From positions 1 to 54,973 of IMG/VR virus record IMGVR_UViG_3300050821_007283: a stretch of DNA of 54,973 nt; one strand, given 5' to 3'. Under the pieces are notes generated by a model, which made no database searches, was not told the DNA's origin, and saw only the letters and a list, made by a program, of their open reading frames with translations. A program made the translations under genes and the position numbers. This DNA is from a virus. This document shows positions 8,597-54,881 of the stretch, piece by piece; positions within the stretch are counted from its first letter, which is position 1; each line of letters starts with the position of its first letter.

Positions 8597-8803
8597 CTAC
8601 GGCTGGCCTGCGGCCGGCGCGGCTTCCGCGGCCCGTGCCTGGCGCTCGAGCTGCCGTCGCCGCCTGGCCACGTGGGCACGGGCCAGCTCCCGGAGGATGG
8701 CGGACCGGTCGGTGCCGTCGAGCTCGGCCACCTGGCCCAGGTCGTCCCAGAGCTGGGCGTCCATGGCGACGAACCGGCCTGGCGTCTTGCGCTGGTTGGG
8801 CAT
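8597..8803 (-). CDS. Small ribbon-helix-helix regulator
   Basis: 68 aa from ATG 8803. GRFVAMDAQLWDDLGQVA and TDRSAILRELARAHVARR match the strand-helix-helix pattern of CopG/Arc-type repressors; the tail is Arg/Ala-rich. Start 8803 is chosen because a near-perfect promoter (TTGCCA 8839-8834, 18 bp, CATACT 8815-8810) places transcription start on this ATG. It is divergent from the accessory operon at 8885, and both promoters carry the same GGTGCATA operator half-sites, so it probably represses both. Identity as RHH is fairly sure; its targets are inferred. Confidence 0.7.
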   Translation of the reverse strand: MPNQRKTPGRFVAMDAQLWDDLGQVAELDGTDRSAILRELARAHVARRRRQLERQARAAEAAPAAGQP

Positions 8804-8884
8804 GGCCCAAGTATGCGAGGTGCATAGGCAGTTTGGCAAGTCAAACCCTTGCGGGTGCATATGCACCTACGGTAGACTGGACCC
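8804..8884. promoter_or_regulatory. Divergent promoter pair with GGTGCATA operators
   Basis: Rightward promoter: TTGCGG 8849-8854, 18 bp, TAGACT 8873-8878, with transcription expected at the ATG at 8885 (leaderless). Leftward promoter: TTGCCA 8839-8834, 18 bp, CATACT 8815-8810, start expected at ATG 8803. A perfect 14-bp palindrome GGTGCATATGCACC (8854-8867) fills the rightward spacer, and one half-site GGTGCATA (8819-8826) lies in the leftward spacer. This is the layout of a repressor-controlled genetic switch. Confidence 0.75.
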
Positions 8885-34029: not shown

Positions 34030-34383
34030 TCATCCATCGGGGTTCTCCTCAGTGCGGCTCGGGCGCGCCGGCTTCCCAGCGCCTTGCAGGAATTCGGCGA
34101 ACTCCAGCACCGCCGAGCGGTCGTGCTCGGACAGGTTCTCCACCTTGCGCAGCAAGGCCTGGTCAGGCGTGAAACGGGACTCTCCGGTGAACCACCCGAG
34201 CGGGCGGCGGTAGAGGCGCATCAGCCTGCGCAGTTGCTCGCCCGTGATGGTGGCTTCGCCTGCCTCGATGCGGGCCAGCAAGCCGATTGCCCAGCCGAGG
34301 GCGTCGGCTGCCTGGCTGAGGCTGATGCCGAGGTACTCGCGGGCGTCGCGGATACGGCCGGGCAGGATTCGCGTGTCAGGCAA
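34030..34383 (-). CDS. XRE-family HTH regulator
   Basis: 117 aa, ATG 34383. RIRDAREYLGISLSQAADAL, GLLARIEAGEATITGEQLRR is a Cro/C1 helix-turn-helix; the second half (YRRPLGWFTGESRF, LSEHDRSAVLEFAEFLQG) resembles HTH proteins paired with ImmA/IrrE peptidases, though none is adjacent. DNA binding is near certain; target unknown. Confidence 0.85.
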   Translation of the reverse strand: MPDTRILPGRIRDAREYLGISLSQAADALGWAIGLLARIEAGEATITGEQLRRLMRLYRRPLGWFTGESRFTPDQALLRKVENLSEHDRSAVLEFAEFLQGAGKPARPSRTEENPDG

Positions 34384-43143: not shown

Positions 43144-43506
43144 CTACGCCACCTCCCTGGCCGCGTCGCCCATCGCTGCCGCGCAGCGGTGCTTGCACAG
43201 GTAGCCGAACGCCGCCGCCCTGCACTCGCAGGACAGCGAGGTGGCGGTGTACTCCCGCTTGCCATCGGTGCTCCTGACCGCCCACACGTTCTCCCGGACC
43301 GGCCTGAGCTTGCCCGCGATGATGAGGTCAGTGGCAGGGGCATTGAGTTTGCCGAACGGGACGGCTGCGAGGCGGGCGGCCTCGGCGCGCTTCTCGTCGC
43401 GGGCTATCGCGAAGCACCGGGCGCTCATCTTCCGGGCGATGCTGGCAGCCGAACGCAACGGCCTGCCGCATCCGTTCCGCTGGCACTTGATGACTTCGGG
43501 TGTCAT
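43144..43506 (-). CDS. SWIM-zinc-finger-like protein
   Basis: 120 aa from ATG 43506, which lies inside operator 1. N-terminal CQRNGCGRPLRSAASIARKM, C-terminal SLSCECRAAAFGYLCKHRCA, the CxC...CxH of a SWIM finger that binds DNA or proteins. A promoter TTGCGG (43542-43537), 18 bp, TATGGT (43518-43513) predicts transcription start at the ATG. First gene of the 43.5-29.4 kb leftward operon. Confidence 0.7.
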   Translation of the reverse strand: MTPEVIKCQRNGCGRPLRSAASIARKMSARCFAIARDEKRAEAARLAAVPFGKLNAPATDLIIAGKLRPVRENVWAVRSTDGKREYTATSLSCECRAAAFGYLCKHRCAAAMGDAAREVA

Positions 43507-43572
43507 GACACCACCATACCTGAGGGTGTCATGACACCGCAAGCCATCTGTAGTATCCTCGGTGTCATGACA
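43499..43572. promoter_or_regulatory. Divergent switch with three TGTCATGACA operators
   Basis: The 10-bp palindrome TGTCATGACA at 43501-43510, 43527-43536 and 43563-43572; the first two extend to GGTGTCATGACACC. The ATG inside operator 1 (read leftward) starts the SWIM gene and the ATG inside operator 3 (read rightward) starts the RHH gene. Leftward promoter TTGCGG/TATGGT has operator 2 in its spacer; rightward -10 TATCCT (43554-43559) has operator 2 over its -35. Confidence 0.8.
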
Positions 43573-43791
43573 GTAGAAGGGCACCGGATGCCGACGAAAG
43601 GCAACCCGCGCCGCACGTTCCGGTTCGAGCCGACCCTGTGGACGGCATTCACCGAGGCAGCGAAGCGCGATCCGCACAAGCGGTCCCCGACCGTCATCGT
43701 GCGTGACTTCATCGCGTGGTATGCAGGCCAGCGCGGTTTCGCGAGACCCGTGCGGCCCAGCGCCCGCGACAGCAAAGAGCAGCAGGACTGA
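43567..43791 (+). CDS. RHH repressor-like protein
   Basis: 74 aa from ATG 43567, in operator 3 (alternative ATG 43588). RRTFRFEPTLWTAFTEAAKR, SPTVIVRDFIAWYAGQRG is a ribbon-helix-helix with a basic strand; the tail is disordered. Likely binds the three TGTCATGACA sites and represses itself and the leftward operon. Monocistronic, closed by a strong terminator. Confidence 0.8.
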   Translation: MTVEGHRMPTKGNPRRTFRFEPTLWTAFTEAAKRDPHKRSPTVIVRDFIAWYAGQRGFARPVRPSARDSKEQQD

Positions 43792-49115: not shown

Positions 49116-49949
49116 CTAGGGGGTTCCGGTCGTCTCGCCCTGGATGGCAGCCTCAAGCGACGGCAGCGGCGGGATGATCGCAGCGAGGAACGAGCCGGGC
49201 GTCGCCGTGAAGCGCGGCGCAGGCCGGGTCACCCAGCGGGAGCGGACTGCGGTCGTCGTGACCTGCTCGCCGCTGCGCTTGTGGACGTAGGAGATTTCCT
49301 CCTCGCCGGCTTCGCGCACGCACACCCGGCCGCGCTTGAAGCCATCCGGGTAGTCGTTCCAGTTCACGCCCTTCTCGGCGAACAGCCGCTCCTGCATCTG
49401 GCTGCCGTTCAGCCCGTGCAGCGATGTGTGGGAGAAATGCGCCTGCGCCGCCATCGACACGCTGTTGCGCACCGCGTCCCGCTGCCGCCACAGGAAGTAG
49501 TTCGCGACCTCCACCGAACCCGGGATGGTGAACACCCGGCCGTCGAACTGCGGCAGGCCGCAAGAGCGGTACGGGTGCGGCTCGGTGCGCCGGGTGGCGT
49601 GTGCCAGCGCGGCAGTCGCGGTCGACGCGGCCACCGACGCCATCTTCTGCACCACGCCGCCGAACCACGGCTCGGTGTGGACCGACCCGAAATCGGCGGC
49701 GAGCACCGACACCTCATCGGACTCGGCGAAGGCCAGGACCGAGCCTGAGATCTCGGCGCACAGGGCTCGCGCCACCGAGTCCATCGCCTCGCTGAACCCG
49801 GCATCGAACGGGCGCTCGGCCTTGCGCAGGTACGCGTGGAAAGCGCGGCCGTCGACCCTGATCACCGTGTAGGTGCGGCGCGGCAGCACAGCTCTCGTGG
49901 CTGCCTCGTAGAGCTTCATGCGGTCACCGAGGGCGCTCGTGTCCGTCAT
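49116..49949 (-). CDS. Thg1-like 3'-5' nucleotidyltransferase
   Basis: 277 aa, ATG 49949. GDRMKLYEAA, VIRVDGRAFHAYLR (metal ligand Asp33), FDAGFSEAMDSVARALC, AESDEVSVL (Asp78, Glu79) and NYFLWRQRDAVRNSVSM are the hallmarks of tRNA-His guanylyltransferase and Thg1-like proteins, which add nucleotides in the 3'-5' direction to repair tRNA 5' ends. Many actinophages carry one. It may mend tRNAs cut by host defence nucleases (inference). Confidence 0.92.
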   Translation of the reverse strand: MTDTSALGDRMKLYEAATRAVLPRRTYTVIRVDGRAFHAYLRKAERPFDAGFSEAMDSVARALCAEISGSVLAFAESDEVSVLAADFGSVHTEPWFGGVVQKMASVAASTATAALAHATRRTEPHPYRSCGLPQFDGRVFTIPGSVEVANYFLWRQRDAVRNSVSMAAQAHFSHTSLHGLNGSQMQERLFAEKGVNWNDYPDGFKRGRVCVREAGEEEISYVHKRSGEQVTTTAVRSRWVTRPAPRFTATPGSFLAAIIPPLPSLEAAIQGETTGTP

Positions 49950-54784: not shown

Positions 54785-54881
54785 ATCCTACGCATGCGCT
54801 GCCGCATGCTGCAAGTTATGCGGTGGCGCATGCGTGCGGTGGTGGCGTGGTATCATGACTCCGGGCATGCGGTCGCGCATG
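54785..54881. promoter_or_regulatory. Replication promoter with ATGCG-N4-CGCAT operators
   Basis: Leftward promoter: TTGCAG (54814-54809), 18 bp, TAGGAT (54790-54785). Operators: GCATGCG-CTGC-CGCATGC (54792-54809, in the spacer), ATGCG-GTGG-CGCAT (54818-54831) and CATGCG-GTCG-CGCATG (54866-54881). The third lies nearer the rightward partial gene at 54920. Confidence 0.7.

What the first reader, a model, noticed from the sequence alone, without database searches (positions are those of the whole stretch)
43499..43572. Start codons of two divergent genes sit at the centre of repressor palindromes
TGTC-ATG-ACA occurs three times; in two copies the central ATG is the start codon of a leaderless gene, one leftward (SWIM) and one rightward (RHH). 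The middle copy lies in one promoter's spacer and over the other's -35. One 10-bp sequence thus acts as operator, transcription start and start codon at once, an unusually economical switch.
Basis: partly seen in the sequence, partly recalled or inferred. Interest (0 to 1): 0.82.

Follow-up and report, generated by a model that had tools for sequence, protein, structure and literature searches.

The report
Phage repressor sites centred on start codons
In this actinobacterial phage, and in many relatives, a small DNA-binding protein appears to control its own gene and a back-to-back neighbour through a 14-letter DNA palindrome whose middle is where RNA copying, and at least in some genes protein making, begins, so one short sequence seems to do three jobs.

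Summary
TGTCATGACA occurs exactly three times in the window, all inside 72 bp, and the left two copies extend to the perfect 14-mer GGTGTCATGACACC. Comparative data support most of the interpretation. The same palindrome, in pairs 24-27 bp apart, lies beside ribbon-helix-helix (RHH) genes of one family in many actinobacterial phages, prophages and chromosomes. In loci with the RHH gene, a TANNNT -10 element sits 6-7 nt before the central ATG at 37 of 163 strand-resolved sites (shuffles: mean 2.6, maximum 9). It does so at 0 of 122 sites in GC-rich loci without the gene. Where coding periodicity is clear, 17 of 18 such sites are in frame with that ATG; without a -10 the figure is 36 of 71. The operator sequence also follows the RHH beta-strand across the family. 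So the palindrome is very probably an RHH operator centred on the transcription start, and its ATG is often a leaderless start codon. For the SWIM gene this is well supported. For the window's RHH gene it is likely but open, because an in-frame ATG 21 nt downstream has a Shine-Dalgarno. It is a recurrent, lineage-specific layout, not a one-off. No binding or 5'-end data exist.

The parts
43499..43512 (.). Operator O1, GGTGTCATGACACC; centre = predicted leftward transcription start and SWIM start codon (43506)
   Evidence: -10 spacing
43525..43538 (.). Operator O2, GGTGTCATGACACC; in the spacer of the leftward promoter and over the -35 of the rightward one
43561..43574 (.). Operator O3, GGTGTCATGACAGT; centre = predicted rightward transcription start and candidate RHH start codon (43567)
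43537..43542 (-). -35 element TTGCGG of the leftward (SWIM) promoter
   Evidence: the same TTGCGG with 16-18 nt spacer in 12 other loci
43513..43518 (-). -10 element TATGGT of the leftward promoter, ends at -7 from A of ATG
43144..43506 (-). SWIM / DUF6011-like 120-aa protein, predicted leaderless
   Evidence: weak Pfam matches SWIM E=0.0025, DUF6011 E=0.0019
43531..43536 (+). -35 element ATGACA of the rightward promoter (inside O2)
43554..43559 (+). -10 element TATCCT of the rightward promoter, ends at -8 from A of ATG (TAGTAT 43551-43556 is an alternative)
43567..43791 (+). RHH repressor gene, 74 aa from the palindromic ATG
   Evidence: (family profile E=1e-24)
43575..43590 (+). Shine-Dalgarno AGAAGG (43575-43580) and alternative in-frame RHH start ATG (43588-43590)
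   Evidence: sequence
8597..8867 (-). Second RHH gene of the family in the same phage, with its own operator GGTGCATATGCACC (8854-8867) and TACCGT -10 ending at -8 from the operator centre

Best explanation
This is the autoregulatory, divergent control region of an RHH (Arc/CopG/omega-type) repressor in a temperate actinobacterial phage. RHH dimers bind three copies of GGTGTCATGACACC. O1 and O3 are each centred on a transcription start, and O2 covers the spacer of the SWIM promoter and the -35 of the RHH promoter, so filling them shuts both promoters. Because the operator's centre reads ATG and lies at +1, the SWIM mRNA (and the mRNAs of unrelated genes in sister elements) begins with AUG and is translated without a leader. 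The window's RHH mRNA would also begin with AUG; the ribosome may use that AUG or the Shine-Dalgarno-led AUG 21 nt later in the same frame. Shown: the sequences, the family-wide link of operator and RHH gene, the -10 geometry, the frame preference and the co-variation of operator with beta-strand. Inferred: binding, repression and 5' ends.
For: (1) An independent scan of genomes for two tandem palindromes brought in loci with an RHH gene of the same family next to them in Streptomyces, Saccharothrix, Umezawaea, Actinomadura, Arthrobacter, Pseudarthrobacter, Aeromicrobium and others. (2) In 30 virus records the exact palindrome occurs 1-5 times; the RHH-type ones form one local cluster. (3) TANNNT ends at -8/-7 from the central A at 37/163 sites in RHH loci (shuffle mean 2.6, maximum 9) and 0/122 in GC-rich palindrome loci without RHH. 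(4) Of -10-bearing sites with clear coding periodicity, 17/18 are in frame with the ATG; without -10, 36/71; Fisher p=4e-4. (5) Six further loci found by another pattern again show RHH and divergent genes opening at palindromic ATGs, for example a protein with a signal-peptide-like N-terminus, MTHVRRVVATIATILVTGAVLAGAATAQ. (6) The leftward promoter TTGCGG-N16/18-TANNNT-N6/7-ATG is shared with 12 other loci. (7) A search by RHH profile, not by operator, in 395 Actinomycetes genomes found operators that track the beta-strand: RRTIR/RQTIR/RRSIR with GGTGTC..GACACC, ARQIR with GGTGTAGCTACACC, HRSVR with GGTGTACGTACACC, HGVR/RGIR with GGTGTG..CACACC. [quoted passage not shown]
Against: No binding, TSS or protein data. 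Many loci share ancestry and the two strands of one operator pair share a spacer, so the counts overstate independence. The window RHH has a Shine-Dalgarno-led in-frame ATG at 43588. In the Streptomyces MPNVEKTP branch the RHH start is Shine-Dalgarno-led and the operator ATG is in frame only 3 times in 11. N-terminal extensions encoded from the palindromic ATG are poorly conserved. No close homologue of SWIM with an alignable N-terminus was found.
Confidence: 0.75

Rival explanations
1. The palindromes are RHH operators centred on the transcription starts, but the window's RHH protein is made from the Shine-Dalgarno-led ATG at 43588; the ATG in O3 is only part of the operator and is in frame by chance. 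Only SWIM uses an operator ATG.
For: AGAAGG lies 7 nt before ATG 43588, and MPTKG matches the usual M/V-P-N start of the family. In the Streptomyces branch the same nearest operator is out of frame and the start is Shine-Dalgarno-led.
Against: With the predicted start at 43566/43567 the mRNA begins with, or one base before, AUG in the same frame. In mycobacteria 5' AUG suffices for translation. In related phage loci the ATG (once GTG) is kept in frame with gaps of 21, 24 and 27 nt to the inner start.
Confidence: 0.4
2. The palindromes bind another regulator (for example the HTH protein at 34030-34383 or a host factor), and the RHH gene is only a neighbour.
For: The phage has an HTH regulator of its own.
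Against: Operator and RHH gene travel together across unrelated elements and hosts; the operator core changes with the RHH beta-strand in samples picked by protein, not by DNA; copies are confined to the RHH locus.
Confidence: 0.06
3. In operon-type relatives the palindrome at the RHH start reflects only a TC-ATGA-C stop/start overlap plus a conserved MTP start, not an operator.
For: In L018, L031, L082, L084, L094, L158 the upstream frame ends at the TGA inside ATGA.
Against: The full 10-mer is exact in L018, L021, L071 and L084, which were found by other copies of the 14-mer elsewhere in the same contigs. This does not apply to the window, where neither start overlaps an upstream gene.
Confidence: 0.05

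Closest known systems
RHH repressors with autoregulation (Arc, CopG, omega, ParG, NikR type)
   Same: Small protein with strand then two helices, upstream repeated inverted operators over its own promoter; profile matches to AvtR, SeqA, NikA, VapB26, omega, ORF56 and ParG
   Different: Operator is 14 bp, repeated every 24-27 bp, and centred on the transcription start of one or both divergent genes; in this lineage its centre is the start codon
CvkR/cas12k divergent pair of cyanobacterial CAST elements (PMC9938897)
   Same: Divergent regulator and target, both leaderless, palindromic operator that itself contains ATG, overlapping promoters
   Different: MerR-type protein; the motif lies mainly in the -35/-10 spacer of cas12k rather than at its start codon, and autoregulation was not supported there
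Leaderless genes of actinobacteria (PMC4633059)
   Same: ATG at +1 is enough for translation; [quoted passage not shown]
   Different: Those are general; here the +1 ATG is at the same time the centre of a repressor site in gene after gene
Arc-like repressors of Gordonia and Rhodococcus phages (Hedwig, Ecliptus, Phistory, Mbo4)
   Same: Homologous RHH proteins; upstream GGTG...CACC inverted repeats in Hedwig, Ecliptus and Phistory
   Different: Operators are GGTGCCAATGCACC or GGTGTGGGCACACC, without ATG at the exact centre

Membership tests
Ribbon-helix-helix (RHH) DNA-binding superfamily | Sequence relation to proven RHH proteins | tested here: met
   Family profile matches RHH chains: AvtR 2e-5, SeqA 0.003, NikA 0.006, VapB26 0.007, omega 0.04; PHROG Arc-like repressor E=0.018 for the window protein
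Ribbon-helix-helix (RHH) DNA-binding superfamily | Short N-terminal strand followed by two helices | tested here: inconclusive
   AlphaFold2 monomer with alignment gives helices 22-33 and 41-52 at good confidence but no formed strand, as expected for a monomer; best PDB neighbour is the RHH protein ArtA, with weak scores (Foldseek E 3.3, Z 2.6)
Ribbon-helix-helix (RHH) DNA-binding superfamily | Binds inverted-repeat operators through the strand | tested here: inconclusive
   Co-variation of strand residues with operator core; no binding assay possible
Leaderless actinobacterial gene (SWIM) | -10 element (TANNNT) ending about 7 nt before the start codon, and no Shine-Dalgarno | tested here: met
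   TATGGT ends at -7; no Shine-Dalgarno upstream
Leaderless actinobacterial gene (RHH) | -10 element ending about 7 nt before the start codon, and no Shine-Dalgarno-led alternative | tested here: inconclusive
   TATCCT ends at -8, but ATG 43588 in the same frame has AGAAGG upstream
Leaderless actinobacterial gene (SWIM and RHH) | Measured transcript 5' end at the start codon | not testable with these tools
   No transcript data

The most novel reading that the evidence does not exclude
The operator is a portable start-codon operator: any gene placed behind TANNNT-N6/7 with this palindrome at its 5' end becomes leaderless and repressible at once. Phages reuse it for unrelated genes (SWIM, HNH nuclease, membrane, secreted and methylase proteins), so one 14-bp element couples repression, transcription start and translation start, and its RHH family reads a simple base code.
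Probability: 0.5. Interest if true: 0.72.

Novelty: new variant of a known kind. Interest (0 to 1): 0.6.

Why it matters
It gives a concrete case in which repressor site, transcription start and start codon are one sequence, repeated across unrelated genes and hosts. This constrains how operators and leaderless genes can co-evolve. The RHH family with its several operator types offers a natural test set for a protein-DNA recognition code. The element could be a very compact regulated expression cassette for actinobacteria.

Tried and rejected
DNA and protein searches of the phage and plasmid collections with the window's own genes found nothing; a Streptomyces RHH query also found nothing there. 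Searches of papers for TGTCATGACA and GTGTCATGACAC found no operator use. A generic test for any clustered 10-bp palindrome in Markov-shuffled DNA was uninformative: 19 of 200 shuffles reached three or more copies, probably through CG-rich repeats, which I did not check. I first thought that the operator ATG was never the RHH start (from the Streptomyces branch); the larger set showed that this depends on lineage. In-frame spacing of 24 nt in the operon-type phages could reflect operator phasing and shared descent, so I do not count it as strong evidence. Codon variation in the N-terminal extensions gave no clear sign of protein-level constraint. A fold search of the RHH model gave only a weak match to ArtA. 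SWIM homologues were too distant to test its N-terminus. Single palindromes in low-GC contigs and in loci without the RHH gene were set aside; the GC-rich ones serve as the negative control.

Full report
What is there. The window is a virus record of 54,973 bp. By protein families it is a temperate tailed phage: terminase, portal, head protease, major head protein, tyrosine integrase, HTH regulator and replication initiator. TGTCATGACA occurs at 43501, 43527 and 43563 and nowhere else. The first two copies are 14-bp perfect palindromes, GGTGTCATGACACC (O1, O2); the third is GGTGTCATGACAGT (O3). The minus-strand ATG in O1 opens a 120-aa SWIM/DUF6011-like protein, and the plus-strand ATG in O3 opens a 74-aa RHH protein.

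Promoters. The leftward promoter reads TTGCGG, 18 nt (which include O2), TATGGT, 6 nt, ATG. The rightward one reads ATGACA (inside O2), 17 nt, TATCCT, 7 nt, ATG.

A recurring module. Scanning virus contigs for the 14-mer gave many GC-rich contigs with two to four copies 24-27 bp apart. Scanning 84,980 genomes for two tandem copies gave 72 loci. A profile of RHH proteins found beside the first set matched ORFs in 44 of the fetched loci. They span Streptomyces, Saccharothrix, Umezawaea, Actinomadura, Arthrobacter, Pseudarthrobacter, Aeromicrobium and phages. In 30 virus records the exact palindrome occurs 1 to 5 times, in one local cluster where it accompanies the RHH gene.

The centre is the transcription start. 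I asked where TANNNT falls relative to the central A on either strand. In RHH loci 27 end at -8 and 10 at -7, no other position holds more than 5, and shuffled flanks give a mean of 2.6 (maximum 9). In GC-rich palindrome loci without the RHH gene the number is 0 of 122. Twelve other loci share the leftward promoter TTGCGG-N16/18-TANNNT-N6/7-ATG. In several loci the two -10 elements lie back to back in the gap between two operators, for example AAGCTAGCAT in L080, so both divergent starts fall on operator centres.

The ATG is used. At -10-bearing sites, 24 of 37 ATGs open a frame of 50 codons or more, against 38 of 126 other sites in the same loci (Fisher p=2e-4). Where coding periodicity is clear, 17 of 18 are in the ATG's frame, against 36 of 71 for sites without a -10 (p=4e-4). 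The proteins are unrelated: SWIM, an HNH-like protein, small membrane-type proteins, a 141-aa protein, RHH itself (apart from SWIM and RHH these names rest on reading the sequences, not on a family search). A second scan with a different pattern brought six more loci, again with an RHH gene on one side and a divergent gene on the other, opening at palindromic ATGs; one divergent product has a signal-peptide-like N-terminus. Five of those six are one lineage. That pattern required the -10, so only the frame result counts as replication.

Where it is not used. In the Streptomyces MPNVEKTP branch the nearest operator (TGTCATGACG) is out of frame and the RHH start has GGAGAG upstream; the middle operator is in frame in 3 of 11, as chance gives. 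In the VTSKG/VTGRSG branch the middle operator is in frame in 8 of 8, with no Shine-Dalgarno before the inner start, and in the six new loci as well. So operator-at-start is general, while start-codon use depends on lineage.

The window's own genes. For SWIM the ATG at 43506 is the only credible start: the cysteine motif begins at residue 8, there is no Shine-Dalgarno, and the promoter is the conserved one. For RHH, ATG 43567 is at the predicted start, but ATG 43588 in the same frame has AGAAGG upstream and fits the family N-terminus. Both may be used. I give about 0.6 to use of 43567.

Who binds. A search by RHH profile in 395 genomes, independent of operator sequence, found 20 places in 15 genomes. 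Their upstream palindromes vary with the beta-strand. T or S (RRTIR, RQTIR, RRSIR) goes with GGTGTC..GACACC, ARQIR with GGTGTAGCTACACC, HRSVR with GGTGTACGTACACC, HGVR or RGIR with GGTGTG..CACACC. HRQVR also goes with GGTGTACGTACACC and NRTLR with GGTGCCAATGCACC, so the rule is not one residue alone. This is what direct reading by an RHH strand would give. These other operators also have some -10 elements at -9 to -7 from the centre, in a small sample (6 of 45 sites); having no ATG there, most cannot supply a start codon.

Mechanism proposed. RHH dimers fill O1-O3; O1 and O3 cover the two starts, O2 the core promoter elements; both genes are repressed and RHH limits itself. When repression lifts, mRNAs start with AUG. 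In mycobacteria a 5' ATG or GTG is necessary and sufficient for leaderless translation (PMC4633059); the window's host is not known, so this is carried over. Repression, binding and 5' ends remain inferred.

Known or new. RHH autoregulation, operators over starts and leaderless genes are each known. CvkR/cas12k is a leaderless divergent pair with a palindromic operator, but there the operator is mainly in the spacer. I found no paper with this operator, within an open-access library only. I therefore call it a new variant of a known kind.

Noticed in passing
window 8597-8867 (-): A second RHH gene of the same family with a different strand (GRFVAM) and its own operator GGTGCATATGCACC at 8854-8867, with a TACCGT -10 ending at -8; the ATG in this operator is also in frame with the gene. 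One phage thus carries two RHH/operator pairs of different sequence.
   Followed up: partly
window 49116-49949 (-): A Thg1-family (tRNA-His guanylyltransferase-like) protein, Pfam E=6.5e-24, in an actinophage.
   Followed up: no
window 54849-54862: GGTATCATGACTCC, two mismatches from the operator, just upstream of the replication initiator frame; may be chance.
   Followed up: no
L207, L214, L215, L209, L212, L220, L211: In RHH relatives with non-ATG operators the RHH start itself looks leaderless, TACGGT or TACCRT then 6 nt then ATG/GTG.
   Followed up: partly
L206/L219 (one actinobacterial genome): Five RHH relatives in one genome, two of them in tandem with slightly different operators.
   Followed up: no
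L084:2219-3610: Four operators at exact 24-bp steps before a methylase-like frame that starts at an operator ATG; the RHH gene follows with another copy at its ATGA overlap.
   Followed up: partly
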